NCBI GenBank assembly: GCA_016191165.1
Contig: JACPPF010000025.1
Coordinates: forward strand, 1 to 38,189
DNA length: 38,189 nt
DNA from: Planctomycetota bacterium
Lineage (GTDB): Bacteria > Planctomycetota > Planctomycetia > Gemmatales > Gemmataceae
Direction: 5' to 3'
Shown here: one piece after another, positions 3,567-10,087 of the stretch
How positions within the stretch are numbered: position 1 is the first letter of the stretch
Layout: every line of letters starts with the position of its first letter
The notes under the pieces: model-generated
What the model was told of the DNA's origin: nothing
What the model saw: the letters and a program-made list of their open reading frames with translations, nothing else
Database searches by the model: none
Position numbers and translations under genes: made by a program

Positions 3567-3600
3567 ATTCCCCTTGCTGGCGCAGGGGGCTGGTAAAACC
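3567..3600. repeat. Palindromic repeat, family A
   Basis: ATTCCCCTTGC-tg-GCGCAGGGGGCTGGT, with the same right end (GGGGGCTGGTA) as the copy at 439-470. It lies between the radical SAM gene and the flavoprotein gene. A TTG start at 3574 for the latter would fall inside it, which argues for the ATG at 3610. Confidence 0.6.
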
Positions 3601-3609
3601 GGATTTCTG

Positions 3610-5100
3610 ATGACCAAAACAATAAGCTGCGATCTGGGCATCATCGGTTCCGGTTTCGGCGGTTCGCTGTTGGCGATCATTGCGCGCCGGTTGGGGTTTT
3701 CCGTCGTTCTCCTGGAGCGCGGCACCCATCCACGTTTCGCCATCGGTGAATCCTCGACGCCGCTGGCCAACTTCAAGCTTGAGCGCATCGCCAATCGCTT
3801 CGACCTGGACTGGCTGAAACCGTTCGCAAAATACGGTCCCTGGAAGGCAACGCATCCTCAGATTCAATGCGGTCTGAAGCGCGGCTTCAGCTTTTTCAAG
3901 CATCAGCGCGATCAGCCGTTCACACCACGGCTGGACAACGCCAACGCGCTTCTCGTCGCTGCCAGCCCGGAAGACGCGCGTTCCGACACACACTGGTTTC
4001 GCGCCGATTTCGATGCCCACCTGGTTGACCAGGCGGTCGAGGCCGGGGTTGTTTACCTTGATCGCATCGAGATTCAATCGGCCAATCGCGAAAGCCCCTG
4101 GCGTTTGCAGGGCCTTCGATCGGACGAGCCTGTCGAGATCCGCGCCGCCCTCGTCGTCGATGCAACCGGCGACGGGCAACTGCTCGGTCGAGCCCTTGGG
4201 CTGGAACGCGTCGATTCCACGCAACTGCTGACTCGCTCACGCGGCTTGTACAGCCACTTCACAGGCGTTGCGCGCTGGCACGACCTGCTCGGCGCAGCGT
4301 CAACGGCCGAACACCCGTTCCCCTGCGATGCGGCTGCGTTGCACCAAATCATCGATGGCGGCTGGATGTGGGTCTTGCGCTTCGACCATGGCATCACCAG
4401 CGCGGGCTTTTCGCTTGATCCCGACCTCCATCCGATTCGGCCCGACGAAGCACCGGACGCGGAATGGGAGCGCCTGCTAAACACCTATCCCTCGCTCGCC
4501 CGGCAATTTCGTGATGCCCAGGCAATTCGGCCCATGGTTCGCACCGGCCGCCTACAACGACGATTCACACGGGCAGCCGGGAGCGACTGGGCGCTCCTGC
4601 CCCACGCGGCGGGATTCCTCGATGCCTGGCTCAGCCCGGGTATCGCCCAGACACTGTTCGCCGTCGAACGGCTGGGCCGGATTCTCGCGGAGGATTGGCA
4701 CACCCCCAACCGCAAGCGTCGGCTTCTTGAATACGGCGAAACGGTGCTGCGCGAACTGGCGTGGATGGACGAGATCACATCGACCTGTTTTCGCTGCCTT
4801 GATCGTTTTGAGGTGATGGTCAGTGCCGCGATGATCTACTTCGTCGCAGCGATCTATTGTGAGGAGCGCGAACGCGCGGGTGAGGCGCCGCCCGATGCCG
4901 CGTTTTTGCTCGCGGATGAGCCCGAATATCGTCGGCTCGCCGCCGAGGTATGCCGGCGCGCGCCGACCGTTCGCGCCGAGGACGCCGCGAATTTCGCCAC
5001 GGAGTTTCGACATGCGTTTGAGGCGTATATTCGATGCGGGCTGTGCGATCCAGGGCGGCGGAATCTGTATCCGTATCCGCCGGGGGAATGTGCATCGTGA
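3610..5100 (+). CDS. FAD-dependent oxidoreductase, flavin-dependent halogenase-like
   Basis: 496 residues from the ATG at 3610. A Rossmann FAD-binding motif IIGSGFGGS is at residues 11-19, followed by LLERGTHPRFAIGESSTP (about 34-51); the GES(S/T)TP segment is typical of flavin-dependent halogenases and related monooxygenases. AALVVDATGDGQLLGRALG matches the second FAD contact. The halogenase WxWxIP motif is only partly present (GWMWVLRFDHG, about residue 251), so true halogenation is doubtful; a halogenase-like monooxygenase or geranylgeranyl-reductase-like dehydrogenase fits equally well. Near the C-terminus, TCFRCL and YIRCGLCDPG hold Cys pairs of unknown use. It follows the radical SAM gene and converges on a small membrane-protein gene. 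Confidence 0.85.
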   Translation: MTKTISCDLGIIGSGFGGSLLAIIARRLGFSVVLLERGTHPRFAIGESSTPLANFKLERIANRFDLDWLKPFAKYGPWKATHPQIQCGLKRGFSFFKHQRDQPFTPRLDNANALLVAASPEDARSDTHWFRADFDAHLVDQAVEAGVVYLDRIEIQSANRESPWRLQGLRSDEPVEIRAALVVDATGDGQLLGRALGLERVDSTQLLTRSRGLYSHFTGVARWHDLLGAASTAEHPFPCDAAALHQIIDGGWMWVLRFDHGITSAGFSLDPDLHPIRPDEAPDAEWERLLNTYPSLARQFRDAQAIRPMVRTGRLQRRFTRAAGSDWALLPHAAGFLDAWLSPGIAQTLFAVERLGRILAEDWHTPNRKRRLLEYGETVLRELAWMDEITSTCFRCLDRFEVMVSAAMIYFVAAIYCEERERAGEAPPDAAFLLADEPEYRRLAAEVCRRAPTVRAEDAANFATEFRHAFEAYIRCGLCDPGRRNLYPYPPGECAS

Positions 5101-5130: not shown

Positions 5131-5376
5131 TCAATTGTCGTCCGAATCATTCTCTGCTGGCTTTGAGTCCTTCGGCGTCATCAGCAACCAGACGAGGCCG
5201 GCAACGCCGAGCACCAGGGAAAGACTGGAACAGCAACACCCGCCGAGGATGCCGGGAAACGCTTCGTTGAAGCTGATCCGCGGTCGATTCACAAGATGCA
5301 GGCCGAACGAAATGCCGCTGATGGCAAGACCGAGCAAGAAGCCGGCGATGCCGATGATCAGGAGTGCGATTCTCAT
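5131..5376 (-). CDS. Small two-helix membrane protein
   Basis: 81 residues with two strongly hydrophobic segments, residues about 3-26 and 44-67 (ILGGCCCSSLSLVLGVAGLV), and an acidic C-terminal tail (SKPAENDSDDN). The family is not recognised. It starts 71 bp after the reverse-transcriptase gene ends, on the same strand, and could be co-transcribed with it. Retron Ec48 is known to carry a separate two-transmembrane effector, so a role as retron effector is conceivable, but the product is much shorter and could equally be an unrelated small planctomycete membrane protein. The CCC cluster in helix 2 is unusual. Confidence 0.65.
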   Translation of the reverse strand: MRIALLIIGIAGFLLGLAISGISFGLHLVNRPRISFNEAFPGILGGCCCSSLSLVLGVAGLVWLLMTPKDSKPAENDSDDN

Positions 5377-5447: not shown

Positions 5448-6716
5448 TCACCGAGTCCAGTCGATGTGTTCGAACAACGCCTGGAGTCTGGCGCCGCGTG
5501 CCGGGTTAAGGTGGCGCAGGTGGGCAACCCGTCCCAAAAGGTGCCGGCGAAAATCGGGATGGCGTTCGCGATTCTGGCACGCGGGGCCGTGACGCGCGCA
5601 GTTGTGGAGGATCGCCTTCAGCCGGTCAAAATCCTCGCGCCGGCAGTTCGTTTTCACATTGACGACGACCCCCGCGACTTGCTGGCACACGCTTTGGCGC
5701 ATGAAGCGCGTTTTTCGAAAGTTCAACTCAAAGCCCTCCTCTCCCGCGATGATGCCAACGAGAACGTTGACGCGTCGGACTGCCCGTTCCAGGTCGTGGC
5801 CGCCGGAGATCGCCAGATCGTCGGCGTAGCGCGTGTAGGTTGCCCCGAGTTTTTCCGCAAGCGCACTCAGACGCACGTCCATGCGCCGGGCCGCGAGGTT
5901 CGCGAACGCGGGAGAGGTCGGCGCTCCTTGCGGCAAATGACGCCGACGCCAGTGAATCCCAGCAACCGTCACGTCGTCCGGCGTCCGCGTCGTGCACAGG
6001 CCAGTCAACAGGCTCGCGACATCAGCGGGATACCCGGCCGTACGAAAAATCGCCCGCACCCGCGCCGCCGACACCGACGCGAAGAAGTCGCGCAAATCAA
6101 AATGCAACACCATCTGCTTGCCAACGTGCGGCCGGGCATAGGACACGATCGAGCGCCCAGTGCGAAAGCCATGCGCGGTATCGTGCGGCGGAATGTGATC
6201 GAGAATCTCATGCAGGATCCGCCGCTGAATGGCCTTGAGGTGAGGCTTCGGCGCTTCGAGCAAGCGTGGCTTGCCGCGGCGTCGCGGGACCCACACGTTG
6301 ACGTAATGCCGCAACTTCGCATCGGCTTGCCGCAGTGTCCATTCCTTGATGTCGGCCAGCCATTCGAGGCGGGTCAGCGGTACGTTCAGCCAGTGGGCCA
6401 GTTGAACGGGAGTGGCCAGCACCGGGACCGGCCAGCGCGCGGTCATGGGCGCGGGTTCAACTGGCACAGCGCGTTGTTCCGGTTCGTGCGGGAGTGCGGA
6501 GATCGCCTTTTTCAAGAATTTGGTGAGCTGCTTGAGACTTGGACGCGAGCCACCGAAGTGCTCCCATACCTGCCCTACAACTTTAGCAGTCAGGGCTCGG
6601 TCGTCCGGAAAAGTGAACCAAACGCGCGACTTCAGCGCCAGACGAACCCAGTTGCCCGCGCGCAGCGTGGCGGCAAGTTGTTCGACGAAATCGGGATCAA
6701 CGTGGAAAGTTGCCAT
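5448..6716 (-). CDS. Retron-type reverse transcriptase
   Basis: 422 residues from the ATG at 6716. All core reverse-transcriptase motifs are visible: FDLRDFFASV at 206-215 (first catalytic Asp), LPQGAPTSPAFANL at 261-274, YTRYADDLAISG at 294-305 (catalytic YADD), then FRKTRFM and the VTG-like VAGVVVN at 347-353, which together point to the retron clade rather than group II introns (no maturase or HNH domain). About 100 residues precede the RT domain (helical, WEHFGGSRPSLKQLTKFLKK), as in some longer retron RTs such as the myxobacterial ones. A longer ORF with a GTG at 6845 exists, but its first 43 codons overlap the strongly structured RNA upstream, so I prefer 6716. Expected role: copying the msd RNA into branched msDNA, usually in anti-phage defence. 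Confidence 0.9.
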   Translation of the reverse strand: MATFHVDPDFVEQLAATLRAGNWVRLALKSRVWFTFPDDRALTAKVVGQVWEHFGGSRPSLKQLTKFLKKAISALPHEPEQRAVPVEPAPMTARWPVPVLATPVQLAHWLNVPLTRLEWLADIKEWTLRQADAKLRHYVNVWVPRRRGKPRLLEAPKPHLKAIQRRILHEILDHIPPHDTAHGFRTGRSIVSYARPHVGKQMVLHFDLRDFFASVSAARVRAIFRTAGYPADVASLLTGLCTTRTPDDVTVAGIHWRRRHLPQGAPTSPAFANLAARRMDVRLSALAEKLGATYTRYADDLAISGGHDLERAVRRVNVLVGIIAGEEGFELNFRKTRFMRQSVCQQVAGVVVNVKTNCRREDFDRLKAILHNCARHGPACQNRERHPDFRRHLLGRVAHLRHLNPARGARLQALFEHIDWTR

Positions 6717-6723
6717 GAGAGAA

Positions 6724-6886
6724 ACGGCGCGGCATTCAACCTTCTCGTCTCGCGCGGCCTTATCTGCGTGAAGCGCAGGCCGAGGCCGCGCGCTGGAACG
6801 CTCGGGATTGTCGCACGCGCGGGGTAGCCCCGCACAGACACCCACGCTGCCGAAACAGCCTGGCGTCTTCTTGAAAGCCGCGCCGT
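6724..6886 (-). ncRNA. Candidate retron msr-msd RNA
   Basis: Read on the minus strand, a1 = ACGGCGCGGCTTTCAA (6886-6871) and a2 = TTGAATGCCGCGCCGT (6739-6724) are inverted repeats matching at 15 of 16 positions. They enclose 131 nt, and a2 ends 7 nt before the RT ATG, the standard retron arrangement (a1, msr, msd, a2, ret). The interior holds a hairpin GCGGGG-cta-CCCCGC (6833-6819) and a larger one with 9-bp perfect arms CGCGCGGCC/GGCCGCGCG (6792-6784 and 6759-6751) capping CTGCG-cttca-CGCAG. The first is a candidate msr stem and the second a candidate msd stem. I could not fix the branching guanosine. An alternative stem (6893-6884 with 6846-6838) competes with a1. Confidence 0.65.
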
Positions 6887-6893
6887 GGGGTGT

Positions 6894-6921
6894 ATTGTCA
6901 ACAATAAAACCAGAGCGTCAA
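6894..6921 (-). promoter_or_regulatory. Candidate promoter of the retron
   Basis: On the minus strand TTGACG (6921-6916) is separated by 16 nt from GACAAT (6899-6894). The a1 arm begins 7 nt further, at 6886, just where transcription should start. Spacing and -35 resemble the two other promoter candidates in the window (TTGACA-N16-TAGAAT). The -10 is only 4 of 6 to consensus. Confidence 0.4.
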
Positions 6922-7108: not shown

Positions 7109-7594
7109 TTAACCAGAGACGCTCGCTTCGGTCCCCGTCGCCAGCTCCGCTGCCGTACCGCTATGCGGATCTTCATTCAATTGCCGCAGCAGGTCCCGCA
7201 CTTCGGGGAGAGCAAAGAAGAGTCTCAGCGAGTTGTCCATGAGGCGCGATTGCATCTGGGTTCCCGTTTCCAAACGCGACAGTGTGGCGTCCGCGCTTCC
7301 GATCAATGAAGCGAGCTCCTTTTGGGTCAGGCCCAGACGCTTGCGTTCCTGGCGAATCTCCTCGGGTTTCAGGAAGCCACGCTGTTGCCGAAATGTCTCC
7401 GTAATCCGCTGGCTGGCAGCGTGGGGTAGGACCGTGTTGCCGCAGCGCTCGCAGCGTCCGACTTGCAGATCAGGAATGTTCACGGTGTAAGTACGGCCAT
7501 CATGGCTTATTTCCGTCGAATAAGGGAGCATCACTAGCTGGACTGCTCTCTCCCGGCAATGACTGCACATCCACGGCAGAGGCTTCATTTTCAT
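7109..7594 (-). CDS. MqsA/YgiT-type antitoxin: zinc finger plus HTH
   Basis: 161 residues. The N-terminal half carries two CxxC pairs (C10/C13 and C48/C51) around a short linker (YTVNIPDLQVGRCERCG), the zinc-binding layout of MqsA/YgiT antitoxins. The C-terminal half (about 76-135: IRQERKRLGLTQKELASLIGSADATLSRLETG) is an XRE-type helix-turn-helix for operator binding. In MqsRA systems the toxin gene comes first and the antitoxin second; the same order holds here, with 21 bp between the upstream ORF and this one. Expected role: neutralise the partner and autorepress the operon at the palindrome at 8005-8018. The 35-residue tail after the HTH is longer than in E. coli MqsA. Confidence 0.85.
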   Translation of the reverse strand: MKMKPLPWMCSHCRERAVQLVMLPYSTEISHDGRTYTVNIPDLQVGRCERCGNTVLPHAASQRITETFRQQRGFLKPEEIRQERKRLGLTQKELASLIGSADATLSRLETGTQMQSRLMDNSLRLFFALPEVRDLLRQLNEDPHSGTAAELATGTEASVSG

Positions 7595-7615
7595 GGTACA
7601 CCATCAAACAGTCGG

Positions 7616-7972
7616 CTATTGGTGATAGTTCACAAGCGAGACTGACGGATAGTCCGGATCTTCATCAAAAAGGTAGAACTCCACGAAGAGGCCTTTCAAC
7701 AAGCCCTGATATGGGATGTTCACCTTGTACCAGTAGTTTCGTCGATGCTGCCATTCTTTCCGGGTTTCCTTCTTCTGGAAAATTGTGCCGCCGTTTCGGA
7801 CAAATTGAACAGGCAGTTCCGTTACCTCGTCCGGGTATAAATTCGCAATTGGCGGTCTGGCGCGCAACCGCTTTTCCTCTTTCTCATCCCATTCCAGACA
7901 CCCGCTGACCTCCACGAGATCGATTGCCTTTCGGACCAACTCCAATTCCTGGAGATCATCCGGCGCGGGCAT
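7616..7972 (-). CDS. Probable toxin partner of the MqsA-like antitoxin (unrecognised family)
   Basis: 118 residues, first gene of the two-gene operon. The start is well supported: AGGAGG lies 7 nt before the ATG at 7972. The C-terminal half is beta-rich and aromatic (YWYKVNIPYQGLLKGLFVEF, FDEDPDYPSVSLVNYHQ), suggesting a small RelE/BECR-like or other ribonuclease fold, but it does not match the MqsR sequence I know. Function is inferred only from position before an MqsA-type antitoxin, from size, and from the operator-containing promoter. The surrounding 7.97-8.06 kb is noticeably more AT-rich than the neighbours, a possible sign of horizontal acquisition. Confidence 0.7.
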   Translation of the reverse strand: MPAPDDLQELELVRKAIDLVEVSGCLEWDEKEEKRLRARPPIANLYPDEVTELPVQFVRNGGTIFQKKETRKEWQHRRNYWYKVNIPYQGLLKGLFVEFYLFDEDPDYPSVSLVNYHQ

Positions 7973-9456: not shown

Positions 9457-9678
9457 ATGGGAGACGAAATCAGAGTCCCGCGCGAATTGTTGGAACAGGT
9501 TGCCGCCGCGCGCCTGCCCGCCGTCACCGATGTGCGTTTGCAAGATTTGATGACCCGCAACAACGACGGCGCGTTGACTCAGAGCGAGCGGACGGAACTT
9601 GAATCTCTTGTGGCCATGAGCGAATCCCTTTCTCTGATGCGTGCCAAGGCAATTCATTTCTTGGGTCGGAAGCCCTGA
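9457..9678 (+). CDS. Small protein preceding an HNH nuclease
   Basis: 73 residues from the ATG at 9457 (MGDEIRVPRELL), helical and acidic, with DVRLQDLMTRNNDGALTQSERTELESLVAMSE. Unnamed family. Its stop codon ends 1 bp before the ATG of the HNH gene, so the two are translationally linked. The charged helical character and the coupling recall an antitoxin or accessory subunit, but I see no DNA-binding motif. Confidence 0.75.
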   Translation: MGDEIRVPRELLEQVAAARLPAVTDVRLQDLMTRNNDGALTQSERTELESLVAMSESLSLMRAKAIHFLGRKP

Positions 9679-9679
9679 T

Positions 9680-10087
9680 ATGTCCACCCGGCCAGAAATT
9701 CGCGAAGCAGTCCAATCGCGGGCCGCACAGCGGTGCGAATATTGCCGTATGTGCCAGGCCCTTCAAGGCGCGACATTTCACCTCGAACATATTGTTCCAA
9801 ACGCCCAAGGCGGGTCGAGTGAACCTGAGAACCTTGCACTCGCCTGCCCAAGCTGCAATCTTCACAAGGCGGATCGAACGGAGGCTGTCGATCCGGAGAC
9901 CGGAACCCAAGTGCCCCTTTTTAATCCGCGGCTACACACCTGGGCGGATCACTTTTCCTGGCGCGATTACCATGCTGTCGGCTTGACCGCCATCGGTCGC
10001 GCAACGGTCGTGATCTTGCAATTCAATTCCCCACGCCACCTGTTGATCCGGGAGGCTGAAGAAAACTTTGGATTATTCCCACCGTGA
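9680..10087 (+). CDS. HNH endonuclease
   Basis: 135 residues from the ATG at 9680. A zinc-binding pair CEYC (C19, C22), the HLEHIVPNAQGGSSEPENLALAC segment (metal and catalytic His at about 34-37, Asn 51) and CPSCNLHK (C56, C59, H62) form a complete HNH/beta-beta-alpha-metal domain. The C-terminal half (WADHFSWRDYHAVGLTAIGRATV) is typical of stand-alone HNH proteins often found with a short upstream gene, as here. DNA cleavage is expected; the biological target (defence, mobile DNA) is not evident. Confidence 0.9.
   Translation: MSTRPEIREAVQSRAAQRCEYCRMCQALQGATFHLEHIVPNAQGGSSEPENLALACPSCNLHKADRTEAVDPETGTQVPLFNPRLHTWADHFSWRDYHAVGLTAIGRATVVILQFNSPRHLLIREAEENFGLFPP

What the first reader, a model, noticed from the sequence alone, without database searches (positions are those of the whole stretch)
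5448..6921. Complete-looking retron: promoter, a1/a2 arms, structured msr-msd candidate and RT
The RT carries retron-clade motifs (QGAPTSP, YADD, VTG-like VAGVVVN). Directly upstream on the same strand lie TTGACG-N16-GACAAT, 7 nt later the arm ACGGCGCGGCTTTCAA, 131 nt with two strong hairpins, and the partner TTGAATGCCGCGCCGT (15 of 16 complementary), 7 nt before the RT ATG. This is the canonical a1-msr-msd-a2-ret order. Retrons from planctomycetes are, to my knowledge, little studied.
Basis: partly seen in the sequence, partly recalled or inferred. Interest (0 to 1): 0.85.

Follow-up and report, generated by a model that had tools for sequence, protein, structure and literature searches.

The report
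Retron family without a neighbouring effector
The window holds a genuine retron, a reverse-transcriptase gene with its own folded RNA template for making small DNA-RNA hybrids, and it belongs to a wide, little-described family from planctomycetes to Burkholderia and Myxococcus that shows no toxin or effector gene next to it, unlike the studied anti-phage retrons.

Summary
Promoter, a1 (6886-6871), a2 (6739-6724) and RT (6716-5448, minus strand) are exactly as described. The RT groups with retron RTs by profile, tree and predicted fold. The decisive test is comparative: an RNA model built only from 40 non-planctomycete relatives finds window 6719-6890 (minus) at 89 bits, E 8.6e-17; the next window hit has 18 bits. 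The same RNA lies directly upstream of the RT in 77 of 80 named loci from seven phyla, with compensatory changes in 24 of 30 pairs (independent set). No Rfam family matches. The RT clade is already in PADLOC (RT_other/RT_outgroup), apart from type XIII/Mx162. Two features stand out: no gene is conserved beside the RT across 141 loci, so no dedicated effector was found, while the RT carries a helical N-terminal domain without a known fold match; and in one planctomycete genus the RT is single-copy in 15 of 15 near-complete genomes, core-like rather than patchy (in the window's own genus none of six other species has it). msDNA production is strongly predicted, not shown. Two key retron papers could not be checked for prior description.

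The parts
6916..6921 (-). -35 box TTGACG of the retron promoter
   Evidence: TTGAC conserved 22-50 nt upstream of the RNA in 59 of 112 homologous loci against 2.7 expected
6894..6899 (-). -10 box GACAAT (4 of 6 to TATAAT), spacer 16
   Evidence: family consensus TAnAnT at about this spacing
6871..6886 (-). a1 arm ACGGCGCGGCTTTCAA, ending in the family signature CAA
   Evidence: covariation with a2
6870..6870 (-). predicted priming (branch) guanosine directly after a1 (CAAG; family mostly CAAGC, window CAAGA)
   Evidence: position by alignment; rule from PMC6868368; function inferred
6836..6868 (-). msr hairpin 1, variable in sequence
   Evidence: fold of the window RNA; only partly in the consensus structure
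6817..6835 (-). msr hairpin 2 with the near-invariant core GGGGNNACCCC
   Evidence: pairs kept in 98.7-99.7% of cells
6751..6792 (-). msd hairpin (outer stem GCGCGGCC/GGCCGCGC, inner stem CTGCG/CGCAG)
   Evidence: strong compensatory changes
6740..6810 (-). predicted reverse-transcribed stretch (msd), about 65-75 nt; ends approximate
   Evidence: inference from the alignment and the usual retron layout; not measured
6724..6739 (-). a2 arm TTGAATGCCGCGCCGT
   Evidence: covariation with a1
6719..6890 (-). whole msr-msd RNA as matched by the independent covariance model R2
   Evidence: 89.0 bits, E 8.6e-17
5448..6716 (-). ret: reverse transcriptase, 422 aa
6432..6716 (-). N-terminal four-helix domain of the RT, residues 1-95, function unknown
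   Evidence: AlphaFold2 models; no significant PDB fold match; no Pfam family for the window's copy

Best explanation
It is a retron. One promoter drives a transcript that starts near a1 and runs through the msr-msd RNA into the RT gene. a1 and a2 pair and present the guanosine at 6870; the RT binds the RNA (probably through hairpin 2 and the msd stem), primes from the 2'-OH of that guanosine and copies the msd, leaving an msDNA of about 65-75 nt joined to about 55 nt of RNA, held in a complex with the RT. Shown here: gene order, conserved RNA structure, conserved promoter, intact RT of the retron clade. Inferred: priming site, msDNA and its ends. Downstream role: most likely a sensing or guarding complex as in other retrons, but the partner is not a conserved neighbouring gene. 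I think it most likely acts through the RT's own N-terminal helical domain, either as a docking site for a partner encoded elsewhere or as part of the response. The claim of a retron making msDNA stands at about 0.9; the downstream role at about 0.45.
For: RT: PADLOC retron RT profiles at 493 and 471 bits full length; tree puts the family in one clade (99/97), outside group II intron RTs; retron RTs fill the first 18 Foldseek rows and VIA ranks 1-14 (Z 28-21) ahead of group II, DGR and DRT enzymes. RNA: independent model hit E 8.6e-17; RNA upstream of the RT in 77 of 80 named loci, two of the three misses being truncated contigs, and in further planctomycete genomes; 24 of 30 and 36 of 42 pairs with double-sided changes, 0 of 500 shuffles as high. 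Promoter conserved. Priming context CAAG at the end of a1 fits the published rule that the stem contains or ends just 5' of the priming G, with contexts TAGC, CAGA, CAGC, GAGC (PMC6868368). No conserved neighbour. Lineage-wide retention: 15 of 15 near-complete genomes of one genus.
Against: NAXXH is YARPH and VTG is VAG in the window. The priming context reads CAAGA, not the family's CAAGC. No msDNA evidence. The role of the N-terminal domain is a guess: no fold match, weak and scattered Pfam hits, and one clade has a different N-terminus. Neighbour tests used simple ORFs within 3-5 kb. In the window's own genus none of six other species has the RT at E <= 1e-60, so in this host it is patchy.
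Confidence: 0.9

Rival explanations
1. A classical three-part defence retron whose effector is a local gene in this window: the MqsA-like antitoxin with its 118-aa partner upstream (7109-7972), or the 81-aa protein with two hydrophobic stretches directly downstream (5131-5376), which recalls the 2TM effector of type IV retrons (from memory, a lead only).
For: The genes are close and on the same strand; MqsA-type family match; two hydrophobic stretches.
Against: None of these genes has a homologue near the RT in 141 related loci, and no PADLOC retron effector model fits them convincingly. RTs this closely related would be expected to share a partner.
Confidence: 0.1
2. A domesticated host element rather than a defence system: the msDNA or the RT complex serves a chromosomal function and is kept by vertical descent; vertical inheritance has been proposed for Mx162 in myxobacteria.
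For: Single copy in 15 of 15 near-complete genomes of one genus, 14 of them without any stop; RT tree follows host families in large part; no effector; vertical inheritance published for myxobacterial retrons (PMC6868368).
Against: Present in only 13 of 27 Myxococcus-type genomes at high identity and patchy in the window's own genus; Acidobacteria, Burkholderia and Prauserella members suggest transfers.
Confidence: 0.35
3. A non-retron RT (group II intron, DGR or DRT-like) with an unrelated upstream hairpin.
For: All share the RVT_1 domain.
Against: Retron profiles and structures score far above group II (51 bits), Drt2 (31 bits) and DGR; the RNA is conserved with the RT across phyla.
Confidence: 0.02
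4. A decayed copy that no longer makes msDNA in this organism.
For: Substitutions in region X, region Y and the priming context.
Against: Open reading frame intact, YADD and QGAPTSP intact, RNA pairing and promoter intact; a changed N in NAXXH is also seen in validated RT-Mxa2 and RT-Eco6.
Confidence: 0.07

Closest known systems
PADLOC RT_outgroup (PDLC03740) / RT_other (PDLC02949) retron RTs
   Same: Best full-length profile matches of the window RT and of its relatives; this is the same RT clade by profile.
   Different: PADLOC as held here gives the RT profile only; the RNA, the breadth and the missing effector are what is added here.
Type XIII retrons, including the Mx162-type (Retron-Mxa1) RT
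   Same: Next best typed profile (334 bits); RTs with an N-terminal extension; priming context CAGC in Mx162.
   Different: Separate clade in the tree; type XIII RTs score 433-515 bits with RT_XIII and one has the SWIM_XIII gene beside it, which the window lacks; Mx162-type loci carry a much longer hairpin and give no hit with the window's RNA model. That L213/L214 are Mx162-type rests on my recollection of the RT sequence.
Retron-Eco1 (Ec86)
   Same: Closest solved structure (7v9x, Z 28.1 over 305 residues); a1-msr-msd-a2-ret order.
   Different: 27% identity over the aligned part; Eco1 lacks the N-terminal domain and has an effector in its complex.
Retron-Mxa2 (Mx65)
   Same: From the literature: N-terminal extension and a substituted N in NAXXH, as in the window.

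Membership tests
Retron | RT groups with retron RTs, apart from group II, DGR and DRT enzymes | tested here: met
   Profiles, tree, folds
Retron | a1-msr-msd-a2-ret order with conserved a1/a2 pairing | tested here: met
Retron | Priming guanosine at the end of a1 in an AGC-like context | tested here: met
   CAAG directly after a1 in window and relatives; window reads AAGA, family mostly AAGC; CAGA is known from Eco2. Priming itself not tested.
Retron | NAXXH in region X of the RT | tested here: inconclusive
   Window YARPH (N replaced); several relatives have NAXPH; 14 of 16 validated RTs have NAXXH, the two outliers also differ at N
Retron | VTG at the start of region Y | tested here: inconclusive
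   Window VAG; relatives VAG or VTG
Retron | Produces branched msDNA | not testable with these tools
   Needs an experiment
Tripartite defence retron | Dedicated effector gene or fused effector domain | tested here: not met
   No conserved neighbour in 141 loci; no known effector domain recognised in the RT
Type XIII retron | RT_XIII as best profile, and SWIM_XIII partner | tested here: not met
   RT_other 493, RT_outgroup 471, RT_XIII 334 bits; separate clade; no partner conserved at the locus
Rfam RNA families, including retron msr | Match at gathering score | tested here: not met
   No match in the window or in relatives

The most novel reading that the evidence does not exclude
A retron kind that works without a linked effector: a lineage-fixed RT-msDNA complex whose new helical N-terminal domain recruits an unlinked partner or replaces the effector, kept as a core gene in some planctomycetes and spread across at least seven phyla.
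Probability: 0.35. Interest if true: 0.8.

Novelty: new variant of a known kind. Interest (0 to 1): 0.62.

Why it matters
Retrons are understood as three-part anti-phage systems in which msDNA holds a toxic effector in check. A large family with a strongly conserved template RNA, a conserved promoter and an intact RT, yet no neighbouring effector, is a direct test of whether that scheme is general. Its presence in every near-complete genome of one planctomycete genus also offers a setting in which the function of a retron that is not patchy can be studied. The RNA model adds a handle for finding such retrons, which Rfam lacks, and the family offers new compact RT-RNA pairs for DNA production in cells.

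Tried and rejected
Rfam at gathering and permissive thresholds: only chance microRNA-like hairpins. First genome-contig scan with the single protein found nothing; the alignment query worked. Judging the arms alone: not enough, at the 95th percentile of a null. Swapping a1 and a2 between sequences was a weak test because arms share GC-rich ends (own pairing 0.88, swapped 0.73); column-wise covariation was decisive. Second RNA copies in the same genome (C162, C30, C47): weak, inside or beside unrelated genes, with similar scores on both strands where checked, taken as chance. Second RT of the genome (C121): no RNA of this family. Neighbour clusters at the family level: only lineage synteny (phosphomutase after the RT in Gemmataceae, Burkholderia context) and common planctomycete paralogues. 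N-terminal domain: Foldseek in PDB gave no significant match (a missing match is no proof of a new fold); EAD1 in 2 of 31 members at E 0.03 is too weak to use. Mx65 membership: could not be tested; family members in Myxococcus genomes have CCAGC, not GAGC. Viral contigs: only distant RTs, at most 39% identity. The papers that classify retrons (gkaa1149, fuab025) and census them (s41587-024-02384-z) are not held.

Full report
What is there. On the minus strand of the window lie, in order, a promoter (TTGACG 6921-6916, GACAAT 6899-6894), an arm a1 (6886-6871), 131 nt with hairpins, an arm a2 (6739-6724) and, 7 nt on, the start of a 422-aa reverse transcriptase that ends at 5448. The RNA folds well beyond shuffled sequence (-93.9 kcal/mol, z -4.6). 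The arm match on its own is only at the 95th percentile of a null taken at random places, so comparison with relatives was needed.

The RT. Its best PADLOC profiles are RT_other (493 bits) and RT_outgroup (471 bits), both covering nearly the whole protein, then RT_XIII (334). NCBIfam ranks retron RT families first, with group II intron and Drt2 far lower. A maximum-likelihood tree puts the window's family in one clade (99/97), with the type XIII/Mx162 group and other retron RTs outside it and group II intron RTs far off; some reference branches are long, so exact relations among retron types are unsure. The predicted structure (mean pLDDT 91.8) matches retron RTs first: Foldseek rows 1-18 and VIA Z 28.1 to 20.9 for ranks 1-14, ahead of group II, DGR and DRT enzymes. 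The catalytic YADD and QGAPTSP are intact. The two retron-specific motifs are relaxed in the window: NAXXH reads YARPH, VTG reads VAG; relatives show NAXPH and VTG. Published retrons Eco6 and Mxa2 also differ at the N of NAXXH (PMC6868368).

The RNA. RT homologues were taken from planctomycete genomes. Upstream of their RTs the arms have other sequences but pair again, mostly ending in CAA and starting in TTG, and 53 of 61 loci have a hairpin of the GGGGNNACCCC type upstream. Thirty-nine were aligned: 42 consensus pairs, 36 with changes on both sides, 93.6% of cells paired, 0 of 500 shuffles as high. The model from this set (R1) found the RNA on the RT strand just upstream of the RT in 77 of 80 named loci; two of the three misses are contigs cut off just before the RNA. 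Some of the 80 are the same contigs as in the training set, so a stricter test was made: 40 RNAs from non-planctomycetes only (Acidobacteriota, Burkholderiaceae and Oxalobacteraceae, Myxococcota, Verrucomicrobiota, other Proteobacteria, Desulfobulbaceae) were aligned by themselves. In them 24 of 30 pairs show double-sided changes, 95.2% of cells pair, 0 of 500 shuffles reach the score, and sliding the partners destroys it. The model from these (R2) finds window 6719-6890 minus at 89.0 bits, E 8.6e-17; the next hit in the window has 18 bits. E-values from these short calibrations are rough; the margin is large. The promoter is part of the family: TTGAC in 59 of 112 loci against 2.7 expected, peak 32 nt before the RNA, followed by a TAnAnT-like box. 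Rfam 15 has no matching family.

How it should work. In known retrons the stem formed by the two arms contains or ends just 5' of the priming guanosine, which lies in TAGC, CAGC, CAGA or GAGC (PMC6868368). Here the arm ends in CAA and the next base, G6870, is strongly conserved, mostly as CAAGC; the window has CAAGA. The conserved stretch before a2 (GACNAGACTCG in the family) is where copying should begin, and the msd hairpin 6792-6751 would be copied, giving about 65-75 nt of DNA. These last steps are inference.

Effector. In 141 loci no gene is conserved beside the RT; clusters reflect lineage synteny only. None of the window's own neighbours except an HNH gene, seen in one other locus, recurs near the RT, and none is a convincing PADLOC retron effector. 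The RT has a roughly 90-residue N-terminal domain of four helices, conserved in most of the family but replaced in one clade, without a significant PDB fold match or a Pfam family in the window. It is the only built-in candidate for a partner or docking site. That is a hypothesis.

Distribution. At E <= 1e-60 the RT is in 172 of 397 sampled genomes of the class. In one genus of another family it is single-copy in 15 of 15 near-complete genomes at 72-82% identity to the query, so core-like there. In the window's own genus none of six other species has it. It occurs widely outside planctomycetes, including a Burkholderia cenocepacia replicon with the RNA in place and 13 of 27 Myxococcus-type genomes. 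Myxobacterial genomes carry type XIII and Mx162-type RTs as separate paralogues; these give no hit with the RNA model. The closest RTs in viral contigs are distant.

Verdict. A retron by every test that could be run in silico. New here, as far as could be checked, are the RNA family with its near-invariant hairpin, its breadth, the absence of a linked effector and the core-like status in one genus. The RT clade itself is in PADLOC, the literature search found no paper on planctomycete retrons, and the main classification and census papers were not available, so earlier description of the RNA cannot be excluded. Mx65 may belong here; not tested.

Noticed in passing
G000:C121:54736-55593 (locus L002): A second retron-like RT in the same genome (best PADLOC RT_XIII 251 bits, RT_X 235 bits) with a hydrophobic stretch before the RT domain and no RNA of this family beside it.
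   Followed up: partly
G000:C141, C29, C151: Further RVT_1 matches in the same genome, so it carries several reverse transcriptases.
   Followed up: no
window 7109-7972, minus: An MqsA-type antitoxin (CxxCG plus HTH) beside a 118-aa protein without any family match, probably a toxin-antitoxin pair.
   Followed up: partly
window 3574-5100, plus: A flavin-dependent tryptophan-halogenase-like protein of 508 aa.
   Followed up: no
window 9641-10087, plus: Small HNH endonuclease with weak PtuB similarity; a homologue also lies near the retron RT of L061 at 38% identity.
   Followed up: partly
L210, L211 (Pyxidicoccus and Myxococcus genomes): RT_XIII-like RT with a helical-repeat-like N-terminus, directly followed on the same strand by a leucine-rich-repeat-like gene that no PADLOC model matches.
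   Followed up: no
L213:2994-3118 and L214:860-945: Mx162-type RT loci with a very long near-perfect hairpin upstream that falsely resembles microRNA families in Rfam; presumably the Mx162 msd.
   Followed up: partly
L063, L067, L071, L077, L102 (Gemmataceae): A phosphomutase-like gene follows the retron RT on the same strand in many members of one family, probably fixed synteny.
   Followed up: no
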